Shown piece by piece: positions 1 to 24,554 of a DNA stretch of 64,000 bases. Made by a program: the position numbers and the translations under genes. A model generated the notes under the pieces. It did no database searches and was not told where the DNA came from. It saw only the letters and a list, made by a program, of their open reading frames with translations. The stretch is from an uncultured Amylibacter sp. (lineage in GTDB: Bacteria > Pseudomonadota > Alphaproteobacteria > Rhodobacterales > Rhodobacteraceae), in the NCBI GenBank assembly GCA_943846615.1, contig OX044354.1, positions 1,877,001 to 1,941,000 on the forward strand, given 5' to 3'. How positions within the stretch are numbered: the stretch's first letter is position 1; each line of letters begins with the position of its first letter.

Positions 1-1
1 T

Positions 2-625: not shown

Positions 626-631
626 TCATTC

Positions 632-657
632 ACCGCCCCCAATAATCTGGGGGCGGT
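632..657 (+). promoter_or_regulatory. Intercistronic hairpin between nrtA and nrtB
   Basis: A perfect 9-bp stem (ACCGCCCCC / GGGGGCGGT) closes an 8-nt loop just after the nrtA stop. No T-run follows. Hairpins after binding-protein genes in ABC operons commonly protect the upstream message or partly terminate, giving more binding protein than permease; that role here is inferred. Confidence 0.65.
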
Positions 658-679
658 AACCATAAAAGAGAGTAAAACA

Positions 680-1753: not shown

Positions 1754-1757
1754 GATC

Positions 1758-5887: not shown

Positions 5888-6222
5888 GCGATTTTATTGA
5901 TATTGGCGCTGTAAACGATATCCCCGTGCGCGCCGCGCGTGTCGTGAAAACGGCGCAGGGGTGTATTGCTGTATTTCGCACTTCGCACGACAAAATTTTT
6001 GCCATCGATGACAAATGTCCACATAAGGGAGGCCCATTGTCCAACGGTATCCAACATGGTGAGAGCATTACATGCCCTTTGCACAATTGGGTGTTTGATC
6101 TGAATACAGGCGTAGCACAGGGCGTAGATGAAGGATCTGTGCAAACCTACCCAACCAAGGTTTTAGATGGTCGCATTTTGATGGCGCGTGCTGCAATTTA
6201 TAAATCGGTTGCCGCTGAATGA
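5884..6222 (+). CDS. nirD: Nitrite reductase small subunit, Rieske-type ferredoxin
   Basis: 112 aa Rieske-fold partner of NirB. Unlike enterobacterial NirD, which has lost the cluster ligands, this protein keeps both ligand pairs: C45-x-H47 (CPHKGG) and C64-x2-H67 (CPLHNWVFD). It should therefore hold a [2Fe-2S] cluster and carry electrons, as described for the NasG ferredoxin of the Paracoccus nas system, where nitrate and nitrite reductases share it. ATGA overlaps link it to nirB upstream and to the nitrate reductase downstream. Confidence 0.93.
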   Translation: MSDFIDIGAVNDIPVRAARVVKTAQGCIAVFRTSHDKIFAIDDKCPHKGGPLSNGIQHGESITCPLHNWVFDLNTGVAQGVDEGSVQTYPTKVLDGRILMARAAIYKSVAAE

Positions 6223-8852
6223 GTGCAGTAAAAACAACATGTGCATATTGTGGCGTCGGCTGTGGCGTAATCGCTACCCCTGACGGGGCTGGGGGGGCGT
6301 CGATACAGGGTGATGAACAGCATCCTGCGAATTTTGGCCGCCTGTGCCTAAAGGGTACGAACCTTGGTCAAACCTTATCCCATGATGGGCGTTTATTGGA
6401 ACCGATGATAAACGGTATCCCCGCCTCTTGGGATGACGCCACCAGCTTAGTCGCACAGAAATTTCGACAAGCCATCGACGAACACGGCCCCGACAGCGTT
6501 GCGTTTTACGTTTCAGGGCAACTATTGACCGAAGACTATTATGTCGCGAACAAGCTGATGAAGGGTTTCATTGGTTCAGCAAATATCGATACCAACTCGC
6601 GCCTTTGCATGGCGTCTTCTGTGGTTGGTCACAAACGCGCCTTTGGTACCGATACAGTCCCCGGAACTTACGAAGATTTGGAACAGGCCGATTTGATTGT
6701 GCTGTTAGGCTCTAATTTGGCGTGGTGCCATCCTGTTTTGCACCAACGTATCATGGTTACCAAAAATGCGCGTGGCACGCAGATTATTAATATCGATCCC
6801 CGTAAAACAGCCACATCTGATTTGGCTGATGTACATCTAGGAATAAAGCCAGGCGGTGACATTGCGCTGTTCAATGGATTGCTTTGCGCTATTGCCGATG
6901 CCGACGCGATCAATGCTACATATGTCGACGAGCATGTAAGTGGTTTTGATGCAGCCTTGGACGCGGCACGGCAGATGAAAATTGATGAAGTCGTGACGCA
7001 AACCGGTTTGTCGACAGATGAACTGAATGCATTCTACGCCGCATGGATTGGAAACAAACGCGTTGTGACGATTTATTCCCAAGGCGTAAATCAAGCCAGT
7101 GATGGGTCAGACAAAGTGAATGCGATCATCAACTGTCACCTTGCGACGGGACGCATTGGACAGGTCGGAATGGGGCCATTCTCAATCACAGGCCAACCTA
7201 ACGCAATGGGTGGTCGTGAGGTCGGTGGCTTGGCAAATACACTGGCCGCCCATTTGGATATTGAAAACGAACAGCATCGCGAAATGGTTGCGGGCTTTTG
7301 GAATTCGCCGAATATTCCAACGGTCCAAGGGCTTAAGGCGGTCGACCTATTCGATGCCTGCGCCAGTGGTCAGATCAAGGCGCTGTGGGTTATGTGCACG
7401 AACCCAGCCGTCAGCATGCCACGCGCCAACGACGTTGCCGCCGCAATCAAGAATGTTGATTTCGTCGCGGTGTCCGACATCATGGCGGATACCGACACCA
7501 CCCGTTTGGCGGATGTTTTATTGCCCGCAACAGGTTGGGGTGAAAAAGATGGAACCGTCACGAACTCCGAACGCCGCATTTCGCGGCAACGTGGTTTCCT
7601 GCCTAAACCGGGTCGGGCAAAACATGATTGGGAAATCATGTGCGATGTTGCATCCAAAATGGGACATGGCAACGCATTTGATTTTCAATCGCCACACGAG
7701 GTATTCGCCGAATGGGCCAACATGACGAGGCTGTCTACTCAAGCGAATAAAGATTTGGACCTAGGTGAACTTTCTGGTCTAAATGCCGAGCAATACGATG
7801 AACTTTCGCCTGTTCAATGGCCTGTGAAGCCTGACGGCTCTGATACTCGGATGTTCGCGAATGGTGCTTTTTTCACCGATGATGGCCGCGGGCGTATGTT
7901 ACCGATAACGTCATCAGACACCGTAAATAAGACTTCCCCTGAATATCCATTTACATTGAACACGGGACGCGTTCGCGATCATTGGCACACCATGACACGC
8001 AGCGCAAAATCAGCCAAGTTAAGCAACCACATGGCCGAGCCCTATCTTGAAATGCATCCCAACGATGCGGCAAATCTAGCAATTTCGCCCACAAGTTTGG
8101 TTAAAGTTAGCAGCCAATATGGCGATGTTATTTTGCGCGCGTTGGTCACAACCCGCGTTCAAGTTGGGCAACTGTTTGCGCCAATCCATTGGACGTCTAT
8201 GTGGGCGGCTAAGGCGCGTATCGACACACTGGTCCCGTCTGTAAACGATCCGTTTTCTGGTCAACCAGAGTTGAAACGCGCAGCCGTAAACGTGACGCCT
8301 TTCAAAGTATCCCGTTATGGTTTTGCGTTGTCGCGTTCCAAACCAACGCCAACAACAGCCTATTGGGCAACAGCGCAAACAAATTCTGGCTGGCGATTGG
8401 AGTTGGGCTCCATTGGAACGCCGCTGGAATTCGAACAATTCGCACGTGCCGAGTTAAATATCATCGATGGGGACGCCGTCGTATTTACTGACGCAAAAAA
8501 ATCACTGAACCGTATCGCCATCGTCAAAGATGGAATTGTCGAAGCGGCGATGTTTATGGGGCCACACCCAGTGGCATTGTCACGCCAGTTTGTCGTTAAC
8601 CAATTTGACGAAGATGCAGACGTAACAATTTTGGCAGGCGTTGCAGGTTCGGATGCGCCCGATGCTGGCCCGACAATCTGCTCATGTTTCGACGTAGGCG
8701 TAAATACACTGGTAAGTGCTATTGAAACCGGTCAAACCGCTAGTCTTGATCAAATTGGTGCATTGTTGCAAGCGGGTACGAATTGCGGATCATGTCGCCC
8801 CGAATTAGCCAACTTGATCAGCAAACATAAACCCCCATTGGCGGCCGAATGA
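6219..8852 (+). CDS. nasA: Assimilatory nitrate reductase, molybdopterin enzyme
   Basis: 877 aa member of the NasA/NarB/NapA molybdopterin oxidoreductases. The N-terminal [4Fe-4S] ligands are C8, C11, C15 and C43 (CAYCGVGC...LCLKG). The motif NSRLCMAS near residue 130 places a Cys where the Mo ligand of assimilatory enzymes lies. The C-terminus adds a BFD-like [2Fe-2S] domain (CSCFDVG...CGSCRPEL), as in Klebsiella-type NasA. No Tat signal is seen, consistent with a cytoplasmic enzyme. It reduces nitrate to nitrite, probably taking electrons from the Rieske NirD or NirB. ATGA overlaps join it to both neighbours. Confidence 0.95.
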   Translation: MSAVKTTCAYCGVGCGVIATPDGAGGASIQGDEQHPANFGRLCLKGTNLGQTLSHDGRLLEPMINGIPASWDDATSLVAQKFRQAIDEHGPDSVAFYVSGQLLTEDYYVANKLMKGFIGSANIDTNSRLCMASSVVGHKRAFGTDTVPGTYEDLEQADLIVLLGSNLAWCHPVLHQRIMVTKNARGTQIINIDPRKTATSDLADVHLGIKPGGDIALFNGLLCAIADADAINATYVDEHVSGFDAALDAARQMKIDEVVTQTGLSTDELNAFYAAWIGNKRVVTIYSQGVNQASDGSDKVNAIINCHLATGRIGQVGMGPFSITGQPNAMGGREVGGLANTLAAHLDIENEQHREMVAGFWNSPNIPTVQGLKAVDLFDACASGQIKALWVMCTNPAVSMPRANDVAAAIKNVDFVAVSDIMADTDTTRLADVLLPATGWGEKDGTVTNSERRISRQRGFLPKPGRAKHDWEIMCDVASKMGHGNAFDFQSPHEVFAEWANMTRLSTQANKDLDLGELSGLNAEQYDELSPVQWPVKPDGSDTRMFANGAFFTDDGRGRMLPITSSDTVNKTSPEYPFTLNTGRVRDHWHTMTRSAKSAKLSNHMAEPYLEMHPNDAANLAISPTSLVKVSSQYGDVILRALVTTRVQVGQLFAPIHWTSMWAAKARIDTLVPSVNDPFSGQPELKRAAVNVTPFKVSRYGFALSRSKPTPTTAYWATAQTNSGWRLELGSIGTPLEFEQFARAELNIIDGDAVVFTDAKKSLNRIAIVKDGIVEAAMFMGPHPVALSRQFVVNQFDEDADVTILAGVAGSDAPDAGPTICSCFDVGVNTLVSAIETGQTASLDQIGALLQAGTNCGSCRPELANLISKHKPPLAAE

Positions 8853-9832
8853 GTACGTTTTCCAAATATGTTCACGCAATGGGGCGTGGCCCTTCCAAAG
8901 GCCGCAACCTCACGCAGGACGAAGCGTTCGATGCTATGGGTCAAATATTGGATGGAGCTGTCGATCCACACGCTGTTGGTGCCTTGTTTATGTTAATGCG
9001 TTATCGCGGTGAAACATCTGATGAAATCGCAGGATTTGTTCAAGGCCTTCGGCGCGACGATGATGGTTGGTCAAACCTAAACGTTGCGGTTGATTGGCCC
9101 AGTTATGCCGCGGGTCGAACACGCGGCATGCCATGGTTTTTATTAGCGGCTAAACTGGTCGCGCAAAAGGGATTCCCAGTATTTCTGCACGGGTGGAATT
9201 CGCATCAAAACCCGGTGGCAAGTGTGCGAAATGGCATGGCTGAACTGGGCATTCAAACCTGTGTGAGCGCGGTTGATGCCGCCAAGATTCTGGCGCGCGA
9301 TGGTATTGTTTATTGTCCGCTTGAGACGTTGCATTCCCGCGCATTACAGCTGTTACAATTGCGTGATGTTCTGGGGCTTCGCTCCGCGGTGAATACCGCG
9401 TTACGCGGATATAACCCGACATTAGCCCCCGTGACACTGCAGGGCGTTTTCCATCCCAGTTATCGTAATCTTCAATGTGATGCTGCCAAATTACTGCAAC
9501 AAAAATCTATGGTTGTCGTCAAAGGTGGCGGCGGTGAATTTGAATTCAATCCCAGTAAAGACACCGATGTATTCTTCCAAGCCGATTACCGACGTTTCAA
9601 CGAAATTGCACCAGCCTTTTTCGACAAAGCGCAACGCCTGAATGAAGTATCCCAAAGCGACATTTCTTTGCGAGGTATTTGGGATGGCACAGATGAAAAT
9701 GATTTTGTGACACAAGTCGTTGTCACGACCGCCGCGGTGGCGATCCAGGGCTGTGATACCGCAATGGCGTTTGCGGATGCGCGTATACTGGCAACCGATC
9801 TGTGGAATAATCGAAACGTGGAAGGACAATAA
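8849..9832 (+). CDS. TrpD2/YbiB-like glycosyltransferase-family protein
   Basis: 327 aa protein with the fold of anthranilate phosphoribosyltransferase. It has the N-terminal helical domain (VDPHAVGALFMLMRYRGETSDEI near 36-60) and a glycine-rich loop VKGGGGEFEF near residue 225. It is likely TrpD2 (YbiB group) and not a true TrpD, because classic PRPP and anthranilate motifs are weak and no trp gene adjoins it. YbiB in E. coli binds nucleic acid without sequence preference; a role in nitrate assimilation is not known to me. The start overlaps the nasA stop (ATGA) and the next gene follows after 4 nt, so it is firmly inside the operon. Confidence 0.8.
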   Translation: MSTFSKYVHAMGRGPSKGRNLTQDEAFDAMGQILDGAVDPHAVGALFMLMRYRGETSDEIAGFVQGLRRDDDGWSNLNVAVDWPSYAAGRTRGMPWFLLAAKLVAQKGFPVFLHGWNSHQNPVASVRNGMAELGIQTCVSAVDAAKILARDGIVYCPLETLHSRALQLLQLRDVLGLRSAVNTALRGYNPTLAPVTLQGVFHPSYRNLQCDAAKLLQQKSMVVVKGGGGEFEFNPSKDTDVFFQADYRRFNEIAPAFFDKAQRLNEVSQSDISLRGIWDGTDENDFVTQVVVTTAAVAIQGCDTAMAFADARILATDLWNNRNVEGQ

Positions 9833-9836
9833 TGCC

Positions 9837-10763
9837 ATGAAAAATTTCCCAATGTTTTTGCAAATGACTGGGCGTCGTGTTTTGATTGTCGGAGGTGGTG
9901 AGCAGGCTGCGCAGAAAGCGCGCTTGATTTTGAAAACAGAGGCCGAAGTTGTTTTTCTGAGCGAAACCTTAAACGCCGAGCTCACGCAATTTGTTGAACA
10001 AGGCAAAGCGTGTCATCTTGATGGCGACCTAACCGCTGACATTATGAGGTCCGCAATTCTGGTGATTTCAGCAACAGGTTGTGCCGGCGCAGGTGCTGCC
10101 CATGCGGCGATGGCACAGGAAACGAATACGCTGATAAACGTCGTTGATATGCCCAATCTATGTGATGCAATGACCCCTTCGATCGTTGATCGTGATCCAT
10201 TGGTCATCGCAATCGGCACCGAAGGTTGCGCTCCTATTTTGGGTCGGCAGATCAAGAGTAAAATTGAAACAATGCTTGAATCGAACCTAGGTGACTTGGT
10301 TGCATTTGCAGGACGTATGCGCGGTGAAGTTTCGCAAAATATTGCGCAGGATAAACGTCGTGGATTTTGGAACTGGGTATTCAACGCAATGCCGCGTCAG
10401 GAGTTTCGGAACGGCAACACACGGCGTGCATTTAGTTTGATTCAAGAGGTAATCGACAACAAGGCAGCAGAGTTCAGCGTCAACGGGCAGGTGTCATTCG
10501 TGCAATCTGAATTCGGCGCACCAGCGCAATTGCAGTTGGGCGATGTTGCCAAGTTGCAGGAAGCAGACTTCATTTACTTCGCCGAAGGTATTCACGAAAA
10601 TATTCTGGAATTGGCGCGACGCGATGCTGAACGGCAAAGTTACAAAAATGATCACGAGATGTTCGCTTATCTAAATTCGCCAGCCTTCACGAAGTTCGCG
10701 AAAAATTACAATATTTCGATAATTACTGCCAGTGAAATACCGCTGGAACAGCGTGTACATTAA
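9837..10763 (+). CDS. Siroheme synthase: precorrin-2 dehydrogenase/ferrochelatase with a remnant methyltransferase domain
   Basis: 308 aa from ATG 9837 (MKNFPMFLQMTGRRVLIVGGG). Residues 1-190 are the CysG N-terminal module: NAD-binding GGGEQAAQKA, the PSIVDRDPLVIAIGTEG signature and the dimerisation region. It would oxidise precorrin-2 and insert iron to make siroheme for NirB. The C-terminal ~90 residues keep the opening of a uroporphyrinogen-III methyltransferase domain (NGQVSFVQSEFG..., KLQEADFIYFAEG, then ILELARRDAER) but lack the GAGPGD SAM loop and the remaining ~150 residues. The methylation step must therefore use another enzyme elsewhere. An upstream in-frame start inside the previous gene is less likely. 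Confidence 0.88.
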   Translation: MKNFPMFLQMTGRRVLIVGGGEQAAQKARLILKTEAEVVFLSETLNAELTQFVEQGKACHLDGDLTADIMRSAILVISATGCAGAGAAHAAMAQETNTLINVVDMPNLCDAMTPSIVDRDPLVIAIGTEGCAPILGRQIKSKIETMLESNLGDLVAFAGRMRGEVSQNIAQDKRRGFWNWVFNAMPRQEFRNGNTRRAFSLIQEVIDNKAAEFSVNGQVSFVQSEFGAPAQLQLGDVAKLQEADFIYFAEGIHENILELARRDAERQSYKNDHEMFAYLNSPAFTKFAKNYNISIITASEIPLEQRVH

Positions 10764-10929: not shown

Positions 10930-10945
10930 GCGAATCATGATTCGC
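10930..10945. promoter_or_regulatory. Perfect 16-bp palindrome upstream of the peptide cluster
   Basis: GCGAATCATGATTCGC is its own reverse complement and lies 121 bases before the first peptide start. The gene-free stretch 10764-11066 is AT-rich, with several TATA-like segments around it and a short TCGAC/GTCGA hairpin at 11007-11022 in the presumed leader. The palindrome is a candidate operator for a dimeric regulator. It matches neither the FNR/NnrR consensus (TTGAT-N4-ATCAA) nor a LexA box, so its regulator is unknown. Confidence 0.45.
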
Positions 10946-11066: not shown

Positions 11067-11294
11067 ATGGCTGATAAGTCTGATTCAAAACGCTGGCCCC
11101 CAATTCTTTTGTACGGCGTTATTATTAACCACGCAATTCAAAGCGGTGACAAAGACGTCATGCAGGCAGTTGCAAAAGTCAGTGAATTTATGATGGATCG
11201 CGCGGGCGATATGTCTGGTGCAGGTGGCGAAGCCGCCGAAATGTCCGAAGATTGGAAAAGTGCGCACAAAGATCTGATGCGGGCGCTTGGTTAA
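11067..11294 (+). CDS. Modified-peptide precursor candidate 1 (DUF1843-like)
   Basis: 75 aa from ATG 11067, chosen because AAGGAG lies 6 nt upstream; a longer start at 11016 lacks such a site. It has ILLYGVIINHAIQSGDKDVM (Tyr16), then VSEFMM, a Gly/Ala-rich insert (DMSGAGGEAAEMSE) and the ending DWKSAHKDLMRALG. The same blocks recur in four small genes downstream of the radical SAM gene. It resembles DUF1843 peptides, which carry a YGV...GDL pattern; I infer a substrate of the neighbouring maturase. It has no signal peptide and no Cys. It is the only copy before the maturase and the only one with the long insert. Confidence 0.75.
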   Translation: MADKSDSKRWPPILLYGVIINHAIQSGDKDVMQAVAKVSEFMMDRAGDMSGAGGEAAEMSEDWKSAHKDLMRALG

Positions 11295-11310
11295 AGTTCG
11301 TTCAAAATCG

Positions 11311-11344
11311 CCGATCCCTTAATTCATTTTCACCGAGGGGTCGG
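11311..11344 (+). promoter_or_regulatory. Hairpin between peptide 1 and the radical SAM gene
   Basis: CCGATCCC (11311-11318) pairs with GGGGTCGG (11337-11344) with one G-U pair and an 18-nt loop. A run of six T follows at 11357-11362, some 12 nt later, so it is an imperfect terminator. It could act as an attenuator that makes more peptide 1 than maturase, or as a 3' stabiliser. Confidence 0.4.
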
Positions 11345-11377
11345 TCTATAAATTAATTTTTTATTCGGACCTTTATT

Positions 11378-12556
11378 ATGAACGAGATGTCTGCCCCCCG
11401 TATTTTGACGGACCAAGATCAAGAACATTGTGTGCCTGTGTATGTCGTTTGGGAAACCACACTGGCATGTAACCTGAAATGTGGACATTGTGGTTCACGT
11501 GCGGGTGATCGTCGAGATGATGAATTGGACACCCAAGAAGCGTTCGATTTAATCGATCAGATGGCGGCGCTGGGCACGCGTGAAATCACAATTATCGGTG
11601 GCGAAGCATTTTTGCGTAAGGATTGGTTGAAACTGGTCGAACGCATTTCCAGCCACGGGATATTGTGCACCATGCAAACGGGTGCATACGGTCTAAACGA
11701 AAAAATGTTACGAGCCGCGATGGACGCTGGACTGGGTGGTATTGGCGTATCCGTAGATGGGCTGGAAGAGGATCATGATAAAATTCGTGGTCGTAAGGGA
11801 TCGTTTCAGGCATGCCTAAAGGCGCTGCGCATCGCCAAGGAGTTGGGCATGGTGACCAGTGCAAACACCCAGATCAATGCGATCAGTTATCAGTACCTGC
11901 GCAAGGTTTTTGACATCGTAGCTGATGCGGGCATTTCCCATTGGCAACTGCAATGGACCGTTGCGATGGGGAATGCCGCAGATAACGATGATGTTTTGCT
12001 GCAACCCTATCTGGTTAAACCCGTGATGGATGAAGTTGCGGAAATTTTCAAACATGCGCAAACGATTGGCGTGACGGTGCGACCGGGGAACAACATCGGC
12101 TATTTTGGCAAACACGAGGTGTTGTGGCGTGGTGGTCAGGGTGGCGGGCATTACGCGGGGTGTCCAGCAGGGCACAATGCAATCGGGATTGAGGCCGATG
12201 GCACGATCAAGGCCTGTCCGTCATTACCCAAAGAGCGGTATTCAGGCGGTAATATCCGGGATCTAACCCTAGAAGACATGTGGCATAATTCACCCGAACT
12301 GGCCTTCAACCGTAACCGTTCAACAGAACAGTTGTGGGGCCATTGCAAGGGGTGCCTATATTCAGATGTTTGCCGCGGCGGATGTACGTGGACCGCGGAT
12401 TCATTGTTCCGCAAGCCGGGGAATAACCCGTACTGTTACTACCGCGTATCCACGTTAGAGAAGCAAGGTATTCGCGAACGCGTGCAAAAAATCGAAGAGG
12501 CACCTGACACCCCATTCGCCGTCGGCTTGTTTGAAATCATCGAGGAACAAATCTGA
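11378..12556 (+). CDS. Radical SAM/SPASM peptide maturase
   Basis: 392 aa. The radical SAM cluster motif is C31-x3-C35-x2-C38 (ACNLKCGHC), followed by the GGE motif (IIGGEAF, 73-79). The C-terminal SPASM domain has seven Cys: C262, C280 (GTIKAC), C323, C326, C332, C336 and C353, enough for two auxiliary [4Fe-4S] clusters. This is the arrangement of RiPP maturases such as PqqE and the sulfatase-maturase relatives. I recall an NCBI family 'GDL motif peptide-associated radical SAM/SPASM maturase' paired with DUF1843 peptides, which fits the five peptides here; this was not searched. The start has only a weak ribosome site; Met4 is an alternative. The stop overlaps the next gene (TGATG). Confidence 0.9.
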   Translation: MNEMSAPRILTDQDQEHCVPVYVVWETTLACNLKCGHCGSRAGDRRDDELDTQEAFDLIDQMAALGTREITIIGGEAFLRKDWLKLVERISSHGILCTMQTGAYGLNEKMLRAAMDAGLGGIGVSVDGLEEDHDKIRGRKGSFQACLKALRIAKELGMVTSANTQINAISYQYLRKVFDIVADAGISHWQLQWTVAMGNAADNDDVLLQPYLVKPVMDEVAEIFKHAQTIGVTVRPGNNIGYFGKHEVLWRGGQGGGHYAGCPAGHNAIGIEADGTIKACPSLPKERYSGGNIRDLTLEDMWHNSPELAFNRNRSTEQLWGHCKGCLYSDVCRGGCTWTADSLFRKPGNNPYCYYRVSTLEKQGIRERVQKIEEAPDTPFAVGLFEIIEEQI

Positions 12557-12795
12557 TGGACCTTTCAACCATGCCCAAAGGTAAGCCATCCGTTTCGTTG
12601 CCCTTGTGCTTAAATTGCGCGGAGTATGTGCTTGATCAGGCCGTGCCCTGTCCACATTGCAATCACGACCCAATGAAACCTGGTGGACGCTACAAAGACG
12701 ATGGGTTTTATGCGCGCGATGCTTTGGAACGATTATTGGACGTAATGGAGCGCGCGGCGAAACTGCAAGAGAATGTCGAAAACAAACAGGAGTAG
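12556..12795 (+). CDS. Small zinc-ribbon protein of the peptide cluster
   Basis: 79 aa, overlapping the maturase stop by one base. Four Cys form CxxC-x10-CxxC (CLNC...CPHC, about residues 16-33), a zinc-ribbon or rubredoxin-like knuckle. The Met/Pro/Gly-rich linker is followed by an amphipathic helix (ARDALERLLDVMERAAKLQ). I do not recognise a named family. Placement between the maturase and four substrates, with peptide 2 starting 4 nt later, suggests a partner that binds the peptides or the maturase, for instance as a substitute for the usual RiPP recognition element, which I do not see in the cluster. Confidence 0.75.
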   Translation: MDLSTMPKGKPSVSLPLCLNCAEYVLDQAVPCPHCNHDPMKPGGRYKDDGFYARDALERLLDVMERAAKLQENVENKQE

Positions 12796-12798
12796 GAC

Positions 12799-12984
12799 AT
12801 GAAAGATATTTTACCGCCATACGGCGTGATTTTACGCGACGCGATCGCAACAGGCGATAAGGATCTGATGGGCGCATTCATCAAGTATAGTGAGTTCATG
12901 ATGAAGCAGAAAATCGACCTGTCTGACAAAGATCGCGAAAGTTGGAAGGCCGCGCATCAGGAATTGGAAAAAGCGGCGCGATAA
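12799..12984 (+). CDS. Modified-peptide precursor candidate 2 (DUF1843-like)
   Basis: 61 aa, preceded by an AGGAGT ribosome site. The order is LPPYGVILRDAIATGDKDLM (Tyr8), then KYSEFMMKQ, then SWKAAHQELEKAAR. Only seven residues precede the YGV motif. It is one of five paralogues; relative to copies 3-5 it has Trp after Ser instead of Asp. It has no Cys and no signal peptide. Proposed substrate of the radical SAM protein encoded upstream. Confidence 0.8.
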   Translation: MKDILPPYGVILRDAIATGDKDLMGAFIKYSEFMMKQKIDLSDKDRESWKAAHQELEKAAR

Positions 12985-13021
12985 GCCCCATTCATAGCAA
13001 CATGCAAAGGAAGAAAATGAA

Positions 13022-13204
13022 ATGGCAGAAGCAAGATTATTATACGGCGTGATCATCCGCGATGCGATGGGCAGCGGCGATAAAGAATTAATGACAGCAA
13101 TGTCCAAGGTCAGCACATTTATGCTGTCCCGCGCAGAGGGCCGCGACGAGGCATTGGAAGATTGGAAACATGCCGACGAAGAATTGCGTAAGGCGTTGGA
13201 TTAA
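13022..13204 (+). CDS. Modified-peptide precursor candidate 3 (DUF1843-like)
   Basis: 60 aa with AAAGGAAG upstream of ATG 13022; an ATG at 13017 is in another frame. It has RLLYGVIIRDAMGSGDKELM (Tyr8), VSTFML, and the ending DWKHADEELRKALD, where HADEEL replaces the usual AHxEL. Spaced 37 nt after copy 2 and with its own ribosome site, as for each copy, which suggests strong independent translation. Same family and proposed role as the other four copies. Confidence 0.8.
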   Translation: MAEARLLYGVIIRDAMGSGDKELMTAMSKVSTFMLSRAEGRDEALEDWKHADEELRKALD

Positions 13205-13222
13205 CACCCCAAGGAAATCGAT

Positions 13223-13405
13223 ATGCGAAAACAATCCCCGATAGTGCCATATGGCGTGCCGATACGAGACGTTATCGCCAGTGATGACAAAGAGCTGATG
13301 CACGCGATGATTATGGTCAGCGACTTTATCGCCAAGTCAACGGGCGTCGACAGGCATGACGACTGGGCACAAGCTCATCGAGAATTACAAAAGGCCGTTT
13401 ATTGA
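13223..13405 (+). CDS. Modified-peptide precursor candidate 4 (DUF1843-like)
   Basis: 60 aa with AAGGAAAT upstream of ATG 13223. It has SPIVPYGVPIRDVIASDDKELM (read as two pieces: VPYGVPIRDV and IASDDKELM), then VSDFIAK, then DDWAQAHRELQKAVY. Tyr10 precedes the GV. The central Gly of GDK is Asp here (SDDK), the one substitution in that motif among the five copies. It begins 18 nt after copy 3 ends. Confidence 0.8.
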   Translation: MRKQSPIVPYGVPIRDVIASDDKELMHAMIMVSDFIAKSTGVDRHDDWAQAHRELQKAVY

Positions 13406-13438
13406 TCGGCATAACCCAAAATGAGAAAGGAATTTATC

Positions 13439-13630
13439 ATGGCAAAAGGAAGCGGAGGTCCGGTCGTTGTCCCATTGTATGGCGTGCCAATCAGAGCAGT
13501 CATCGAAAGCGGCGATCCTGATCTGATGAAAGCAATGCTGCAGGTGAGCGATTATCTGATCGGCCAATCACAAAATGGCATGGCCGACTGGGAAACAGCC
13601 CATCAAGAGCTGGTAAAAGCAACTCGATAA
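13439..13630 (+). CDS. Modified-peptide precursor candidate 5 (DUF1843-like)
   Basis: 63 aa from ATG 13439, selected because AAAGGAA lies about 7 nt upstream; an in-frame ATG at 13421 would contain that site. The N-terminus is Gly-rich (MAKGSGG), followed by VVVPLYGVPIRAVIESGDPDLM (pieces VPLYGVPIRAV and ESGDPDLM; Tyr14), VSDYLIG, and DWETAHQELVKATR. It has GDP instead of GDK. It is the last gene of the cluster and converges on dnaE2. Confidence 0.8.
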   Translation: MAKGSGGPVVVPLYGVPIRAVIESGDPDLMKAMLQVSDYLIGQSQNGMADWETAHQELVKATR

Positions 13631-13723: not shown

Positions 13724-16700
13724 CTAATGAAAATCTCTACTTGGAAAGAGCCGCTTTGCTTGGTCGCGGGGATGCATGGCGCGTGTTTGATGTTTGCGCG
13801 GGCGTGGCGTATCATCGGCCTGAATTTGAGTTTCACCAATAACCTCATCCATTGGGTGGCCCAGTTCGGACAGATAATGGGACATATCTTCGACATTTTG
13901 TGCAATCAGATGCACCACGATCCCTTCGCGCTGTAGATACCCAGTGATTTTCAACAGGCGCCCGCTCATGACTGCACGACGAAATCGTTCATAGACCTTG
14001 GGCCAAACGACCACGTTTGAAACGCCTGTTTCATCCTCTAACGTCAGAAAAATCACACCTGATGCGGTGCCTGGGCGTTGGCGAGTGATGACCAATCCGC
14101 ATACAGATGTCCGTGCCAGCGGCGCCGTGGGCAACTCGATATGCGAGGTCAATCCGCGAAAGGAGCCGCGCAACAGTTCCATCGGATGCGCACGCAACGA
14201 GAGGCGCATTGCAACATAATCTTCAACGACCTCTTCACCTAAATGCATCATAGGCAGAGCGACGCTGGCTTCTTGAATTCCCTCCCCATCAATTTTATTA
14301 TCAAATAAGGGCAGCGGGCGCGGGCTTCGAATGGCCTTCACCTGCCAGAGCGCATCACGTCGATTAAGACCTATATCACCAAACGCATCCGCCTCGGCCA
14401 GCCGCTCCAATGCGGCAGGGGATATGCCTGCGCGCATCCAAACGGCCTCCACATCGGAAAAACCATTTCCGCGGGCCGCCGCGATCCAATCGGCATCTAC
14501 TTCTTTGAAACCTTTGATCTGGCGAAACCCAAGGCGCAAGGCCAGTGTGCCGTCCATGCGCCGCTCCAGCGTGTTATCCCATGCGCTATGGTTCACGCTG
14601 ATGGCGCGGACTTCGACTTGGTGTTCGCGCACATCGCGCACGATTTGCGCTGGGGCATAAAACCCCATGGGCTGCGAGTTTAACAGTGCACAAGCAAAGA
14701 TAGCAGGGTGATGACATTTTAGCCAAGATGAAACATATGTCAGCATCGCAAAGGCTGCGGCATGACTTTCGGGGAAACCGTAATCTGCGAAGCCTTCAAT
14801 CTGTCCGAAACAACGCTCAGCTACCTCTTGGGTGTATCCATTTGCACGCATACCTTGCGTGAACTTATCACGAAACTTACCGATTGTTCCCATACGACGG
14901 AACGAGGCGATTGAGCGGCGTAAATGATCGGCCTCTGCTGGTGTAAAGCTCGCACCAACAATGGCGATTTGCATCGCTTGTTCTTGGAACAATGGTACAC
15001 CAAGTGTACGCTTGGTAACTGCCTCTAGCGCTGGGCCAAAGGGTTCAGATTTTTCTAATCCTTGTCGCCGCTTGATATAGGGCTGTACCATACCGCCTTG
15101 AATTGGGCCTGGGCGAACGATGGCGACTTCAATCACCAAATCATAAAAAGTACGGGGCTTCATCCGCGGTAGAAAATTCATCTGCGCACGGCTTTCGACC
15201 TGAAACACACCGACCGCATCTGCAACGCAAAGCATGTCATAGGTCGCGCTATCCTCTTGTGGAACATCCGCGATCGAAAGAGACATTTGTTCATACCGAG
15301 CCAAGAGGTCAAAAGACTTCCTGATGCAACTGAGCATCCCAAGCCCAAGAATATCAACCTTTAGGATGCCTAATGTATCGATGTCGTCTTTATCCCACTC
15401 AATAATTGTACGGTCGTCCATCGCCGCGTTCTCAATTGGGCAAAGTTCATCAAGACGTCCTTTGGTAATCACAAAACCGCCAACATGTTGGGATAGATGG
15501 CGTGGAAATCCAATAATTTCACCAATCAAGCGTATGGTTTGCGCAAGTCTGCGATCGTTAAGGTCAAGCCCCAACTCTTGAATGCGGTCGGGATCGGCAC
15601 CGCGATTGCTGCTCCCCCAAATTTGCCCTGATAAGCTGGCCGTAACATCTTGGCTAAGCCCCATCACCTTGCCCACTTCACGAATGGCGCCGCGCGATCT
15701 GAAATGCGTAACTGTCGCACATAGCCCCGCACGATGGCGGCCATATTTACGATAGATATGTTGGATCACTTCTTCGCGCCGTTCATGTTCAAAATCCACA
15801 TCAATGTCAGGTGGCTCGCCGCGATGTTCAGACACGAAACGCTCCACCACCATGGCGATCGTTTCAGGGCTGACATCTGTAATGCCGAGCAGGTAGCACA
15901 GTATGGAATTGGCAGCAGAGCCGCGCCCTTGGCATAGAATTCCTTCTTTGCGTGCAAATTCAACGATGTCATGAACCGTTAAAAAATAGGCAGGAAATTT
16001 TAACTTCTCAACCAAGGCTAATTCTTTCTTGACTTGCCTCTGTGCTTTGGGGGTTGGCCCATTGGGGTATCGGGTTGCCAAACCTGCCATCGCCAAACGA
16101 GAGAGCCGTGCTTGTGGGTCTTCGCCATTAGATATCTCATCAGGATATTCATACGACAGTTCGCTTAAACAAAAACTGCATCTGGCAGCGATCTCTAAAC
16201 TGCGGCGCAGGGCAGCTGGGTGATTGCGAAACAGTCGCGCTAAATCCGTATGACCTTTCAAGCGCCGTTCGGCATTTGGCAAGGCGCGCGTGCCAATTTC
16301 GTCAATCGTGATCTGCTCGCGTATACACGTTAACACATCCGCCAATTGCCTACGTGCCGCCTTGTGCATTAAAACATCCCCAACCGCGACCATAGGGGCG
16401 GCTGTTTTATGCGCCAGATGTGCACAAGCATTAAAATAAGTTTGATCATCCCCGTTATAACGCGGGGCGGTGCCACAGAAGATGAAACCAGGGTATCGCC
16501 GTTGCATGTCTTGAATCGGCCGGATCGCCGAGGTCAGATCATGTGGCGGCAAAGCAATCAGAATGATGCCTGTGCAACCCTCTAAAAGGTCGCTGTATTG
16601 CAAATGGCAATCACCTTTTTCGGCGCGTCTTTTGCCACGCGTCAAAAGCCTGCAAAGCCGCGCATAAGCCGCACGATCGCAGGGGAGTGCAATCCATTCC

Positions 16701-17041
16701 ACAGGACTGTCGGTTAAGACCAACCGACAGCCGACAATTAACTTTGGCAGGTTTAGGGCCTTGGGACGTATGATCGCTTGAACGTGACCAACGTCTTGTC
16801 GGGATGACCCGTCAATCGGGCGTTCTGCGCTGATATGGTTGTCTTTATCCGCCTCCCGCCTTAGTTCTTTAAGTGCCGCATAGGCCCGTACTACACCTGC
16901 CATTGAATTGCGGTCAGTAATCGCAATAGCGGTTAATTCCAGTTCCGCGGCACGCATAATCAGTTCTTCGGGGTGCGATGCGCCGGTTAAAAACGTAAAG
17001 TTCGTTGTTACGCAAAGTTCTGCGTAATTTTCATGGTTCAT
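13724..17041 (-). CDS. dnaE2: Error-prone DNA polymerase III alpha subunit, DnaE2/ImuC
   Basis: 1105 aa C-family polymerase. The N-terminal PHP domain (YAELCVTTNFTFLTGASHPEEL, read as YAELCVTTNF and TFLTGASHPEEL) is followed by the catalytic domain, with PPDIDVDFEHERREEV carrying palm Asp residues near 400, the helix-hairpin-helix region, and a C-terminal OB fold (VCGLVITRQRPGTASG near 1000). It lacks the C-terminal tail of replicative DnaE1 and groups with ImuC by length and by its partners. It performs mutagenic translesion synthesis with ImuA and ImuB. The start overlaps the imuB stop by 4 nt (ATGA). Confidence 0.96.
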   Translation of the reverse strand: MNHENYAELCVTTNFTFLTGASHPEELIMRAAELELTAIAITDRNSMAGVVRAYAALKELRREADKDNHISAERPIDGSSRQDVGHVQAIIRPKALNLPKLIVGCRLVLTDSPVEWIALPCDRAAYARLCRLLTRGKRRAEKGDCHLQYSDLLEGCTGIILIALPPHDLTSAIRPIQDMQRRYPGFIFCGTAPRYNGDDQTYFNACAHLAHKTAAPMVAVGDVLMHKAARRQLADVLTCIREQITIDEIGTRALPNAERRLKGHTDLARLFRNHPAALRRSLEIAARCSFCLSELSYEYPDEISNGEDPQARLSRLAMAGLATRYPNGPTPKAQRQVKKELALVEKLKFPAYFLTVHDIVEFARKEGILCQGRGSAANSILCYLLGITDVSPETIAMVVERFVSEHRGEPPDIDVDFEHERREEVIQHIYRKYGRHRAGLCATVTHFRSRGAIREVGKVMGLSQDVTASLSGQIWGSSNRGADPDRIQELGLDLNDRRLAQTIRLIGEIIGFPRHLSQHVGGFVITKGRLDELCPIENAAMDDRTIIEWDKDDIDTLGILKVDILGLGMLSCIRKSFDLLARYEQMSLSIADVPQEDSATYDMLCVADAVGVFQVESRAQMNFLPRMKPRTFYDLVIEVAIVRPGPIQGGMVQPYIKRRQGLEKSEPFGPALEAVTKRTLGVPLFQEQAMQIAIVGASFTPAEADHLRRSIASFRRMGTIGKFRDKFTQGMRANGYTQEVAERCFGQIEGFADYGFPESHAAAFAMLTYVSSWLKCHHPAIFACALLNSQPMGFYAPAQIVRDVREHQVEVRAISVNHSAWDNTLERRMDGTLALRLGFRQIKGFKEVDADWIAAARGNGFSDVEAVWMRAGISPAALERLAEADAFGDIGLNRRDALWQVKAIRSPRPLPLFDNKIDGEGIQEASVALPMMHLGEEVVEDYVAMRLSLRAHPMELLRGSFRGLTSHIELPTAPLARTSVCGLVITRQRPGTASGVIFLTLEDETGVSNVVVWPKVYERFRRAVMSGRLLKITGYLQREGIVVHLIAQNVEDMSHYLSELGHPMDEVIGETQIQADDTPRPRKHQTRAMHPRDQAKRLFPSRDFH

Positions 17042-18504
17042 GGAAATTCACCATGCACGAACCAACTTGGGTTTTGCGGCGTATAAAACATCCAAAGCCG
17101 CCGCCCCTCATTCGTTTCCACCTTCCAGTAATCACGTACGCCAGATTGCCAATTTTCATCTGGCAGCCACCATTCAGGTGCAATGCGTTCAGGACCTGTG
17201 ATATGCCCAACAGTGAAATACATACGCCGCCATCGTATCGATTTCGGTGGGATGGAGCCTGTGCCTTGGATACGCTCTGGATTGAATAGTTGTATGGGGC
17301 GCTCGCGATCACGTCCCCATGATCCGTCTGCTTCGGAATAGGCAACGGGTGCGATCGTAAAGCTGTGTTCTGGGATATGGCTATCGGCAGGTAAAAGCCG
17401 CTGTACATTCTCCAGTCCAATCCGGTTCCCAATGCGGGTGATCAGGTCGTCCAGGTGGCCGTTTGTTTTACCCGTTGTGTGGCTAATTTGTTTGGTCGCT
17501 AACCTTTCAACCTGTGTTGCAATCAAACGTAACTGGTCGATCCCAAATCCTGCATCAATTCCCCCAATTCCACGCGTAAACAAGGGTAATATTCGCGCAG
17601 GATCGCGCATCGGGCACGCTAGACGTAGCTCGATCTGTTGTGTGCCCCTGTCAACACGACGCAAGTTCAGGGATAGAACGCGCGCACCCACTTCCTGTTG
17701 TTTTAATCGGTCACAAAGTTGGGTCAGTAGGCGTTCTGTCCCCGCCAAGACATCCGCTTCAAGACCAATCGGATCTGGTAGATTAAGTCGTGCTTGGTAT
17801 CTGGGCGGATCTTCTATGGGGGATATATCTTCGGGCTGTGCACCCAATGCTTGGTCAAGCCGCAACAACACGACAGCCCCGAACCGCCGGGTGATGGTGC
17901 TGCGCGGTAATGCGGTTAAATCCAAAATTTTGCGAATGCCCAACCGTTGCAAAGAGATGCACGTTTTAGAGTCCAATCGTAATGCTGCGATGGGCAAGGC
18001 GCCAATAGCATTCAAAGATTGACCTTCTGTAGCGATGCCTTTGCCATAATGGGCAATTGCCCACGCCGCTCCACGCGTGTCGGCCATGCCGCTGCGAACC
18101 GAAATGCCTGCGCGTTCAATCCGCCAGTGGATATCGTTTAAAAATGTGACCTCATTTTGGTAAAGATGCACGGAACCTGTAACATTTAGGACGAGGCCAT
18201 CCACGCCCTCAATCCCAACCCAAGGACAATAGCGTTTGGCCCATTTCACAAGGGTATGTAGAAACCGTTGATCCCCTTCTATATCTACGGGCCGCGTTTG
18301 AAGATTGGGACAGAAGGCGCGTGCGTCTGCATATCCCATGCCTACGTGTAATCCTTCGTTTGTGGCCAGTTGGTTGAGGCAGTAAAGTCGTTCCGTATTA
18401 TTTTGCCGCTCTATCAAAGCAAAAGGTGCATCAATCGGCCACGCCCGAAGAAACCGGTCACTGGCCAGTCTTGGAAACCACAATGATACGACGCGTTTCT
18501 GCAT
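17038..18504 (-). CDS. imuB: ImuB, inactive Y-family polymerase homologue
   Basis: 488 aa from ATG 18504 (MQKRVVSLWFPRLASDRFLR), chosen because all ImuB proteins start with this block; longer in-frame extensions overlap imuA deeply. It has the Y-family fold, but the first catalytic acidic motif of DinB (DxD) is absent, with LWFPRLASD in its place. ImuB is known as a hub that tethers ImuA and DnaE2 to the beta clamp. It overlaps imuA by 47 nt and dnaE2 by 4 nt, forming one operon. Confidence 0.92.
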   Translation of the reverse strand: MQKRVVSLWFPRLASDRFLRAWPIDAPFALIERQNNTERLYCLNQLATNEGLHVGMGYADARAFCPNLQTRPVDIEGDQRFLHTLVKWAKRYCPWVGIEGVDGLVLNVTGSVHLYQNEVTFLNDIHWRIERAGISVRSGMADTRGAAWAIAHYGKGIATEGQSLNAIGALPIAALRLDSKTCISLQRLGIRKILDLTALPRSTITRRFGAVVLLRLDQALGAQPEDISPIEDPPRYQARLNLPDPIGLEADVLAGTERLLTQLCDRLKQQEVGARVLSLNLRRVDRGTQQIELRLACPMRDPARILPLFTRGIGGIDAGFGIDQLRLIATQVERLATKQISHTTGKTNGHLDDLITRIGNRIGLENVQRLLPADSHIPEHSFTIAPVAYSEADGSWGRDRERPIQLFNPERIQGTGSIPPKSIRWRRMYFTVGHITGPERIAPEWWLPDENWQSGVRDYWKVETNEGRRLWMFYTPQNPSWFVHGEFP

Positions 18505-19027
18505 CCCAACGGATATCCCACGTTTTAAATGTTCCTGATTTGTTCTTAATAAGTTTCCAGCGCTGAAGAGTCGAGTCCGTTGCGTCGAAAAGGGGCGCGC
18601 AATGCCACCGGGTTTCGGCTGCATTACTGCCCATCCCGTCCTGGATAATGCAAAGACCGATTGTGCCGCCGGTTTTTGCGGCCAGTTGCAATCGACGCCC
18701 AACAGTAAGGCCGATTGGCTTTGTCAGTTCAATAATAGCCAAAGTTACCGCACCAGATCGCAAGGTTTCTTCGGCGGTAGCCAAAACTTCCGTCTCATCC
18801 TTGCCTTTGGCAATTATAAGGTCGTGGGGGTCAAAATAGTGGTTAAACCCCAATGGATTGATCTGGTCTGTTTGCCAGGCCGTACGCACCCACAATGCCG
18901 TCCCTCGCGCCTGTCCCGCAACGGCACAAGCAAAGCTCACGGCGCTGGGCCCACATACCTCATGTACGCGGTTTTCTTTAAGGGGGAAATGCTTTTGGAA
19001 TTCTGACGTCATAGTAGCGTTTACCAT
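18458..19027 (-). CDS. imuA: ImuA, SOS mutagenesis RecA-like protein
   Basis: 189 aa from Met at 19027; Met at 19012 is an alternative, and an upstream in-frame ATG at 19072 would overlap the preceding gene. It resembles SulA/ImuA-type RecA-fold proteins: EVCGPSAVSFACAVAGQARG, HDLIIAKGKDETEVLATAEE, GLTVGRRLQLAAKTGGTIG. It is short for the family (often 220-270 aa) and the P-loop is degenerate. Only 23 nt separate it from the upstream hydroxyacid dehydrogenase gene, and I found no GTTC-N7-GTTC LexA box in the gap or just upstream, so the SOS promoter may lie further away. Confidence 0.85.
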   Translation of the reverse strand: MVNATMTSEFQKHFPLKENRVHEVCGPSAVSFACAVAGQARGTALWVRTAWQTDQINPLGFNHYFDPHDLIIAKGKDETEVLATAEETLRSGAVTLAIIELTKPIGLTVGRRLQLAAKTGGTIGLCIIQDGMGSNAAETRWHCAPLFDATDSTLQRWKLIKNKSGTFKTWDIRWDAETRRIIVVSKTGQ

Positions 19028-19050
19028 CTTAAAGGAATTCTTCCTAAAAC

Positions 19051-20034
19051 CTAAACGTTGGGGATAATCCAATTCGGTGGGCGATGCCCGTCTTGGTGCA
19101 TTTTGATATTCAAAATCACCGTCTCACCCATTTCATGGCGTGCTTCTTGGGTGGCTGATCCCATATGGGGCAACAACATGACATTTGGCAAATCGCACAA
19201 TGTTTGGTTCACATCGGTTCCCGTGGCCAATACGTCCAGCCCAGCGCCCGCTAAACGTCCATTCGTCAACGCATCCTCAAGGGCTGCCTCGTCGATCAAA
19301 CCACCGCGTGCGGTGTTCACAACAAATGCTGTTGGTTTCATCTGGGCCAATGCGGTGGCATCCAAAATGTTTTGGGTTTCGTCGGTCAAAGGACAACAGA
19401 TCGCCAAAATGTCCACCTCTGGTAACAGGCCGTGCAGGCTGTCGTGATATGTTGCGTTTAAACGGGTTTCCGTATCTGGATGGGCCTTGCGACGGTTATG
19501 GTAATGCACGTTTAATCCGAAAACACGCGCACGTTCTGCCAATGCGGTGCCGATGCGCCCCATGCCCAATATGCCCAATGTTTTGCCACTGACGCGTGCG
19601 CCCAATAATGCGGATGGTGCCCAGCCCTGCCATTCGCCTGATTCCATCACTGTGGAACCTTCCTTAAATCGGCGCATCACGGCCAAGATCAACGCGATAG
19701 TCATGTCGGCCGTATCCGCCGAACTGATGGTTGGTGAATTTGCGACCAAGATGCCCGCCTTATGCGCACCGTCTACATCGATGTGATCCACGCCAGATCC
19801 GTAATTCGCCAGCAATCTCAGCCGATCACCCGCTTGGGCCAATAATTCCGCATCAATCTGATCATTCAATGTCGGCACCAAAACATCGGCGCGTTGCATT
19901 GCGGATATCAATTGGTCACGGCTGAACGGCACATCGCTTTGGTTCAATTCCACGTCAAACAGCTCTTTCAAACGCGCCTCGACGGTGTCGGGCAACTTGC
20001 GTGTCACGATGACTTTGAAATCTGAATTTGGCAT
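19051..20034 (-). CDS. D-2-hydroxyacid dehydrogenase (glyoxylate/hydroxypyruvate reductase-like)
   Basis: 327 aa. The NAD(P)-binding motif is GILGMGRIGTALAERARVFG near residues 155-175 with HNRRK after the second strand, which suggests NADPH preference. Catalytic Arg is in NTARGGLIDE, Glu follows about 29 residues later in the usual position, and His is in LLPHMGSAT. It probably reduces glyoxylate or hydroxypyruvate. Transcribed toward imuA with a 23-nt gap. Several related enzymes act on other 2-ketoacids, so the exact substrate is open. Confidence 0.9.
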   Translation of the reverse strand: MPNSDFKVIVTRKLPDTVEARLKELFDVELNQSDVPFSRDQLISAMQRADVLVPTLNDQIDAELLAQAGDRLRLLANYGSGVDHIDVDGAHKAGILVANSPTISSADTADMTIALILAVMRRFKEGSTVMESGEWQGWAPSALLGARVSGKTLGILGMGRIGTALAERARVFGLNVHYHNRRKAHPDTETRLNATYHDSLHGLLPEVDILAICCPLTDETQNILDATALAQMKPTAFVVNTARGGLIDEAALEDALTNGRLAGAGLDVLATGTDVNQTLCDLPNVMLLPHMGSATQEARHEMGETVILNIKMHQDGHRPPNWIIPNV

Positions 20035-24392: not shown

Positions 24393-24554
24393 CGAAAACT
24401 CCTGTAACTTTCCCATAACCTAGGCACGTTTTGCCGCCATATCCAGCGCCAACCATACACATTGTCGTTTTTTGAAAGAAACAGTCGGCACCCCTAGCGC
24501 GAGCCGCCAATTTTCTGCAATTCTGGATGCAATTAAATCTGCGGAGATTCGAAA

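What the first reader, a model, noticed from the sequence alone, without database searches (positions are those of the whole stretch)
11067..13630. Compact radical-SAM peptide system with five paralogous substrates and a zinc-ribbon partner
Seen: five short proteins (60-75 aa) with the common order YGVxI, then (S/T)(G/D)D(K/P)x(L/V)M, then (V/Y)S-x-(F/Y), then a C-terminal (D/S)Wxx-A-x(3)-L motif, around one radical SAM/SPASM protein with 3+7 cluster cysteines and one CxxC-x10-CxxC protein. Known: SPASM proteins commonly modify peptides; DUF1843 peptides carry a YGV...GDL pattern and I recall an associated maturase family. Inference: a RiPP-like system with several substrates per maturase. No protease, transporter, immunity gene or usual recognition element is present, so product and role are open.
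Basis: partly seen in the sequence, partly recalled or inferred. Interest (0 to 1): 0.9.

Follow-up and report, generated by a model that had tools for sequence, protein, structure and literature searches.

The report
Likely tyrosine-excising enzyme with five substrates
A bacterium carries a small gene cassette in which one radical enzyme, with a separate zinc-binding helper, probably cuts part of a tyrosine out of the backbone of five sister mini-proteins, leaving a reactive group that could inhibit proteases; it is a variant of a known enzyme class whose chemistry on such proteins I could not find tested.

Summary
Five selected paralogous small proteins (60-75 aa), one radical SAM/SPASM maturase with 3+7 conserved cysteines and one CxxC-x10-CxxC protein form a seven-gene cassette at 11067-13630. 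The maturase groups with the NCBIfam "GDL motif peptide-associated" maturases (TIGR03913) but misses the cut-off (504 of 592 bits). The peptides are divergent DUF1843 proteins, also below the Pfam cut-off. The zinc protein is the usual C-terminal domain of these maturases as a separate gene. The next family is TIGR04103, to which I assign (by recall) the tyramine-excising PlpX; a Nostoc member is 50% identical. Different substrate types beside this enzyme clade share X-Tyr-Gly: DUF1843 proteins, a nif11 core, an NHLP-like frame, myxococcal lipoprotein-like ORFs, a short Agathobacter ORF. All five window peptides have it. I therefore propose tyramine splicing at YG. Main caveats: 33 of 82 DUF1843-type sites read YA, and some sister loci show no convincing XYG substrate. 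The chemistry is inferred, not shown. Known class, variant architecture.

The parts
10930..10945 (.). 16-bp perfect palindrome GCGAATCATGATTCGC, 121 nt before P1; possible operator
   Evidence: the only site in the genome with up to 2 mismatches; GAGAATCACCATTCTC lies 140 nt before P1 in L006. Weak on its own: as many such palindromes in 0.08 (window) and 0.13 (L006) of shuffles.
11067..11294 (+). P1, DUF1843-like substrate, 75 aa; LYG site (Tyr codon at 11112)
   Evidence: (PF08898 21.0 bits, cut-off 23.3)
11310..11345 (+). hairpin (11-bp stem) between P1 and the maturase; possible attenuator or processing site that favours P1
   Evidence: z -2.65; a hairpin of different sequence at the same place in L006, but z only -0.77
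11378..12556 (+). radical SAM/SPASM maturase, 392 aa, without the C-terminal zinc ribbon of most relatives
12556..12795 (+). stand-alone zinc-ribbon partner, 79 aa, start overlaps the maturase stop (TGATG); homologous to the C-terminal domain of fused TIGR03913-type maturases
   Evidence: hhalign 98.4%, E 1e-14
12799..12984 (+). P2, DUF1843-like substrate, 61 aa; PYG site (12820)
   Evidence: (19.8 bits)
13022..13204 (+). P3, substrate paralogue, 60 aa; LYG site (13043)
   Evidence: no Pfam match of its own
13223..13405 (+). P4, substrate paralogue, 60 aa; PYG site (13250); no counterpart found in L006
   Evidence: (13.3 bits)
13439..13630 (+). P5, DUF1843-like substrate, 63 aa; LYG site (13478), context VPLYGVPI
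   Evidence: 19.1 bits; three-helix model

Best explanation
[quoted passage not shown] SHOWN by sequence: a SPASM maturase of the TIGR03913/TIGR04103 clade, its detached zinc-ribbon domain, and five DUF1843-like proteins, each with one X-Tyr-Gly (X = L or P); in the model of P5 this site lies just before helix 1. INFERRED: maturase and zinc protein form the working enzyme; the zinc ribbon with its helix recruits or positions the folded substrate in place of a leader-binding element; the 5'-deoxyadenosyl radical starts removal of a tyramine equivalent (-C8H9NO, about -135.07 Da) at the YG site and the backbone is rejoined, as PlpXY does. The DUF1843 body with its GD...M turn acts as a built-in recognition scaffold, so no leader peptidase is needed. 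MORE SPECULATIVE: the ketoamide is an electrophilic warhead, and five paralogues with different flanks form a set of intracellular protease inhibitors or otherwise reactive proteins. My estimates: the maturase modifies these five proteins, 0.8; at the YG tyrosine, 0.7; by tyramine excision, 0.55; protease inhibition as the role, 0.25.
For: Maturase bits: TIGR03913 504, TIGR04103 450, next family 155. It is 50% identical to a Nostoc TIGR04103 maturase (853 bits, over the cut-off) that sits between a nif11 precursor ending GGRGSIALYGLPPELF and a small overlapping partner gene. 23 DUF1843-type maturases form one clade (98/98); in a second sample of 14 support is 71/90. Tyr is kept at 81 of 82 sites in 29 loci and 28 of 29 loci have at least one YG (tallied by hand; many Pseudomonas rows are near-copies and the HMM seed contained the motif). 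XYG recurs in other types of protein beside sister maturases: myxococcal ORFs with a zinc ribbon (L021, L023, L028), a frame in L098 with two YGPP and weak NHLP-precursor similarity (E 0.0045, 17 of 40 bits), and a 68-codon unannotated ORF just before the Agathobacter maturase that ends GPVMYGTGVRM. Literature: PlpXY removes C8H9NO at XYG, natural sites MYG and LYG (PMC10533398, passages). Spliceotide products are called protease inhibitors (PMC11117315, passage; PMC10373908, one section).
Against: In relatives the residue after Tyr is A at 33 of 82 sites, M at 1 and D at 1; in L100 the only peptide found has YD; L022 has one LHA. Either YA sites are accepted, or they stay unmodified, or the chemistry differs from PlpX. 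Two of five window sites have X = Pro, not among the natural PlpX sites that I read of. PlpXY itself is choosy: of the tags listed for FtsZ, both LYG ones (GGPIRPLYGLPI, GPIRPLYGLPI) were not accepted, so likeness of P5 to that core proves little. The window maturase passes neither curated cut-off. The zinc partner shows no sequence relation to the Nostoc small partner, and the window peptides have no nif11 or NHLP leader match. No convincing XYG substrate was found beside L025, L027, L030, L031 or L053, though some ORFs there hold a YG; L089 is unclear. No mass data exist here.
Confidence: 0.55

Rival explanations
1. Same enzyme, substrates and site, but other chemistry at the conserved tyrosine (for example oxidation, crosslinking, epimerisation of the preceding residue, or cleavage without rejoining).
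For: Tyr is nearly invariant (81 of 82) while the next residue is G, A, M or D; P before Tyr goes only with G (27 of 27) whereas A after Tyr goes only with L or M before it (32 of 32 with Tyr), which suggests two site classes. SPASM enzymes do varied chemistry (family names).
Against: Nearest other family is TIGR04103, by recall the PlpX family, and XYG recurs in several different substrate types of the clade.
Confidence: 0.25
2. The five proteins are structural or regulatory small proteins (for example self-assembling) and the maturase acts on something else or only incidentally on them.
For: DUF1843 was proposed to self-assemble because paralogues repeat within operons (PMC10994174, passages). 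The same passages report a monomeric protein and no oligomer for a DUF1842-DUF1843 protein made in E. coli; they mention no maturase.
Against: DUF1843-like peptides sit beside the maturases of the clade; in the phylum sample both maturase genomes other than the window's have adjacent DUF1843 genes. Tyr is the most conserved residue (34 of 35 rows).
Confidence: 0.1
3. The peptides are precursors of a small tyrosine-derived cofactor, as in PQQ or mycofactocin.
For: The maturase has distant similarity to PqqE and the mycofactocin maturase (94 and 109 bits), and the model of a relative resembles PqqE; no export gene in the cassette.
Against: Tyr is internal, several different paralogues are kept under selection, no further genes are in the cassette, and those bit scores compare with 504.
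Confidence: 0.05
4. The zinc-ribbon protein is an independent regulator rather than part of the maturase.
For: It is a separate gene here, in L006 and in L004; it also has a marginal match to a RelB-like antitoxin family (E 0.009, 16 of 50 bits).
Against: Homologous to the fused C-terminal domain (TIGR03913 positions 422-465), start overlaps the maturase stop; in L089 a ribbon is fused at the maturase's N-terminus and in three loci to the presumed substrate.
Confidence: 0.12

Closest known systems
[quoted passage not shown]
   Same: Clade of maturase, homologous peptides (hhalign 97.6%, E 2.7e-12), homologous zinc ribbon.
   Different: Zinc ribbon is a separate gene; the peptides are stand-alone and all YG, with no DUF1842 match and no YA sites; four of five peptides lie downstream of the maturase; scores below both curated cut-offs.
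PlpXY splicease and spliceotides (nif11-class maturases, TIGR04103 by recall)
   Same: Second-best family (450 bits), 50% identity to the Nostoc member, X-Tyr-Gly site, small partner gene overlapping the maturase.
   Different: No nif11 or NHLP leader match in the window peptides; the partner is a zinc ribbon without detectable relation to the Nostoc partner; substrates are small helical proteins; activity untested.
Myxococcal and related loci of the same enzyme clade (L021, L023, L028)
   Same: Related maturase and XYG sites nearby.
   Different: Zinc ribbon is fused to the presumed substrate, which looks like a lipoprotein (my reading); no DUF1843.

Membership tests
TIGR03913 GDL-peptide maturase | curated bit score 591.75 | tested here: not met
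   503.8 bits over positions 5-391; zinc protein 17.3 bits at 422-465. Some fused relatives miss it too: L020 535, L005 501; L008 passes with 663.
TIGR03913 GDL-peptide maturase | phylogenetic grouping with the DUF1843-associated maturases | tested here: met
   23 rows on one side of a branch, 98/98; 71/90 in a second sample of 14 such rows
DUF1843 (PF08898) | Pfam gathering score 23.3 | tested here: not met
   best 21.0 (P1); P2 19.8, P5 19.1, P4 13.3, P3 none; none of the five found by PF08898 at E 0.001 in the genome search
DUF1843 (PF08898) | homology at profile level | tested here: met
   hhalign 97.6%, E 2.7e-12 against 17 DUF1843-type rows
Spliceotide / PlpX splicease | TIGR04103 cut-off 725 | tested here: not met
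   450 bits
Spliceotide / PlpX splicease | X-Tyr-Gly in the substrate | tested here: met
   5 of 5 window peptides
Spliceotide / PlpX splicease | PlpY-like partner | tested here: not met
   no alignment to the Nostoc small partner, itself only a presumed PlpY equivalent; PlpY itself was not at hand
Spliceotide / PlpX splicease | tyramine excision (-C8H9NO) yielding a ketoamide | not testable with these tools
   needs mass spectrometry
RiPP | gene-encoded precursor modified by a cassette enzyme | tested here: inconclusive
   gene anatomy and co-occurrence fit; modification not shown
RiPP | leader removal and export genes in the cluster | tested here: not met
   no such ORF in the cassette by reading; elsewhere in the genome not searched
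RRE domain | winged-helix RRE fold | not tested
   no RRE search run; the 79-aa partner is a zinc ribbon followed by a helical stretch

The most novel reading that the evidence does not exclude
A family of intracellular proteins, not leader-core peptides, is armed by backbone splicing at one tyrosine, and recognition is carried by a mobile zinc ribbon that is found fused to the enzyme at either end, free, or fused to the substrate. Here five co-encoded paralogues would form a set of ketoamide inhibitors against the cell's own or competitors' proteases.
Probability: 0.25. Interest if true: 0.78.

Novelty: new variant of a known kind. Interest (0 to 1): 0.56.

Why it matters
DUF1843/DUF1842 proteins are listed among transcripts strongly up at stationary phase in Burkholderia thailandensis (values 7.3-8.0 in the table; PMC12322963, passage) and up under quorum sensing in Chromobacterium (PMC12114271, passages; PMC10197875, passage), yet the passages name no function. 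If they are substrates of a tyramine-excising enzyme, one mass measurement would give them a modification, widen splicing from peptides to abundant small proteins, and suggest why a DUF1842-DUF1843 protein made in E. coli told little about its DUF1843 part (PMC10994174, passages). A compact split enzyme with five natural LYG/PYG substrates could also be a useful tool for placing ketoamides in proteins.

Tried and rejected
Rejected: chance ORFs. Rejected: a second copy of the system in this genome. Fold match for the P5 model: 0 PDB hits at E 0.001 or better. A splicease structure: none among the PDB hits listed; best are SkfB and PqqE by sequence (10 hits) and SkfB, PqqE, anSME by fold (first 50 of 255 at E 0.001 shown). 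Docking of the zinc ribbon on the fused model could not be read, as the output gives no coordinates or PAE. Empty site: in the same-genus genome G120 the two flanking genes lie about 523 kb apart, so no empty site can be compared. Sigma-70-like promoters: 3 found against 4.7 expected by shuffling; terminator-like sites 4 against 3.6. Relation of the zinc protein to the Nostoc partner: none. First regex surveys missed peptides that later calls found: the HMM found those of L007, L009, L010, L012 and others, and one search found the Agathobacter ORF.

Literature limits: the original papers on widespread splicing (Scott et al. 2022) and on the conserved helix (Richter et al. 2024) are not held, so whether they already cover TIGR03913 or DUF1843 systems I cannot say. 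Five papers were found for DUF1843 or DUF1842; I saw passages of all five, and none of these passages speaks of splicing. Two further papers found for 'GDL motif' are on other subjects by title and were not opened. Of 24 papers with at least one of the splicing terms, the 20 listed had no occurrence of TIGR03913 or TIGR04103. Searches added no such paper.
Full report
CHECK. The seven ORFs exist as described, all on the + strand, in the order P1, maturase, zinc protein, P2, P3, P4, P5. Motif scans find the five sites and nothing else in 64 kb, and a peptide profile finds only these five in the 2.75-Mb genome at E 1. Comparison with the Sulfitobacter MAG L006 (maturase 91% identical) shows third-position bias and dN/dS of 0.10-0.12 where measurable. 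L006 holds the same cassette with four peptides; P4 has no counterpart there. The one blastn match between L006 and the window lies within the cassette. The window flanks are nitrate-assimilation genes and dnaE2/imuB/imuA-like genes (my reading); the L006 flanks are different genes (my reading). So the cassette keeps together in different places.

FAMILIES. The maturase hits TIGR03913 (504 bits, cut-off 592) and TIGR04103 (450, cut-off 725) far above the third family (155). The zinc protein matches TIGR03913 positions 422-465 (E 0.0012), beyond the end of the maturase match at 391, and a profile of the three stand-alone zinc proteins matches the C-terminal tails of 13 fused maturases (98.4%, E 1e-14). 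So the 'zinc-ribbon partner' is a split domain. The peptides hit DUF1843 below its cut-off; a profile of ten window-type peptides matches 17 DUF1843-type rows (97.6%, E 2.7e-12), and 32 of 35 rows of the joint alignment hit DUF1843 at E 0.1.

DISTRIBUTION. Matches to the maturase, own genome included: 3 of 295 genomes of the same family (E 1e-40); 5 of 385 of the class (E 1e-80); 3 of 398 of the phylum (E 1e-80); each a sample drawn from a larger group. The same-genus genome in these samples has none. In the phylum sample DUF1843 was found at E 0.001 in 5 of 398: the two other maturase genomes, both with the genes adjacent, and three genomes with matches that begin at profile position 13 or 14 inside frames of 750-774 residues; I take these three as other proteins, untested. 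The window's own peptides were not found by that Pfam model.

SITE. Of 541 relatives the genome scan kept 80 loci; I examined the closer ones. A peptide HMM (seeded from the window, L004, L005, L011, L016, L020, L086 and L087, so Tyr-Gly was in the seed) found peptides in 23 of 35 loci scanned, and in L095-L097, L099/L107 and L100 but not in L098. A hand tally of the positive loci gives 29 loci with the window and 82 sites: Tyr 81; next residue G 47, A 33, M 1, D 1; preceding residue L 48, P 27, M 4, W, A, V 1 each. P before Tyr always goes with G; A after Tyr goes only with L or M. Seven loci are YG only, among them the window, L004, L005 and L006. Rows are not independent: seven come from close Pseudomonas. 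In a 35-row alignment Tyr is kept in 34 rows.

SISTER SYSTEMS. The tree of 40 maturases puts the 23 DUF1843-type rows together (98/98), inside a larger clade with a Nostoc nif11-type maturase, Myxococcota and a Tropicibacter plasmid maturase; in a 30-row tree with L098 and L100 added the group stays single at 71/90. What several sister loci share next to the enzyme is X-Tyr-Gly: the Nostoc nif11 precursor (PF07862) ends in GGRGSIALYGLPPELF; L021 has two zinc-ribbon, lipoprotein-like ORFs with VYGAP, LYGAP, MYGAA; L023 has DYGAP, and L028 LYGAA and AYGVA (one L028 ORF also has a MopE-type metal-binding motif); L098 has a 161-residue frame with GYGPP and IYGPP and weak similarity to NHLP-type precursors (E 0.0045, below cut-off); the Agathobacter plasmid L090 (maturase 32% identical) has an unannotated 68-codon ORF just before the maturase that ends GPVMYGTGVRM. 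None of the tested sister substrates matched DUF1843. Against this: beside L025, L027, L030, L031 and L053 I found no convincing candidate, though ORFs there hold some YG (L031 is a short contig), and L089 is unclear. L032 and L033 were not examined for XYG on their own.

ZINC RIBBON. In the 23 DUF1843-type loci the ribbon is C-terminally fused in 20 (18, L086 and L087) and free in 3 (window, L004, L006). Outside them it is N-terminally fused in L089 and fused to the presumed substrate in L021, L023, L028. In the maturase frames of L100 and L098 none was seen. The short alignment of all types shares only four cysteines and one proline, so common descent of all ribbons is not shown; for free and C-terminal ones it is.

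MECHANISM. From passages of PMC10533398, PlpXY removes a tyramine equivalent at Tyr-Gly of XYG and rejoins the ends, and works without a leader on a ten-residue tag. Tags listed there hold PIRP(L/G)YGLPI; P5 reads VVPLYGVPIR. The two LYG tags in that table were not accepted in FtsZ, two longer or substituted GYG ones were. PMC11002830 (passage) puts PlpX in IPR026482 and calls PlpY an RRE; that IPR026482 is TIGR04103 is recalled. PMC12710340 (passage) says PlpY is too small for an RRE fold. From these I infer tyramine splicing at the five YG sites, with the zinc protein in the partner role. The AlphaFold model of P5 (mean pLDDT 75) has three helices and places YG at residues 14-15 just before helix 1 at 16, behind a low-confidence N-terminus: an accessible place, if right. 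The fused relative L008 (mean pLDDT 79) has a SPASM maturase fold (nearest SkfB, PqqE, anSME), a zinc-ribbon region modelled with pLDDT above 80 and a long C-terminal helix (464-497).

ROLE. By reading, no protease, transporter or immunity gene is in the cassette. Spliceotide products are called protease inhibitors in two papers that cite this (PMC11117315, passage; PMC10373908, section). A protease-inhibitor set is therefore my first guess for the role, at 0.25.

COMPARISON. It works, I think, like a splicease, and it belongs by descent with the GDL-peptide maturases, although both curated cut-offs are missed. What differs: split zinc domain, five stand-alone YG-only substrates, most of them downstream. 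I call it a new variant of a known kind. Prior coverage of this family in the two unread papers is possible and would lower the novelty.

Noticed in passing
window 10930-10945; L006 3208-3223: Palindromes GCGAATCATGATTCGC and GAGAATCACCATTCTC at similar distances before P1; the arm change C..G to A..T keeps the symmetry, which suggests a shared operator, but each is weak against shuffles.
   Followed up: partly
L021, L023, L028: Lipoprotein-like ORFs that begin with a zinc ribbon and carry XYG sites beside a maturase of this clade; possibly a class of spliced surface lipoproteins.
   Followed up: partly
L098 (complement, frame from 2890): 161-residue frame with two YGPP sites just before a maturase without zinc ribbon; weak NHLP-precursor similarity.
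   Followed up: partly
L090 4692-4898: Unannotated 68-codon ORF ending GPVMYGTGVRM directly before a maturase on an Agathobacter rectalis plasmid from a human gut isolate; looks like a short precursor.
   Followed up: partly
L089 4713-8404: Tropicibacter plasmid maturase with an N-terminal zinc ribbon, followed by a trypsin-like peptidase gene and an M23 peptidase gene.
   Followed up: no
L010-L019, L022, L087: Trio loci combine one PYG peptide with LYA, LYG or MYA partners (one LHA in L022); PYA never occurs among the 82 sites, which hints at two substrate classes.
   Followed up: partly
window 1-10763 and 13724-19072; L006: Cassette lies between nitrate/nitrite assimilation genes and a dnaE2-imuB-imuA-like mutagenesis cassette; in L006 it lies near a copper nitrite reductase-like gene and an Fnr-like regulator (my reading).
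   Followed up: no
window 22371-24416: M3-type oligopeptidase-like gene (FHEFGHALH motif, my reading), more likely housekeeping than linked.
   Followed up: no
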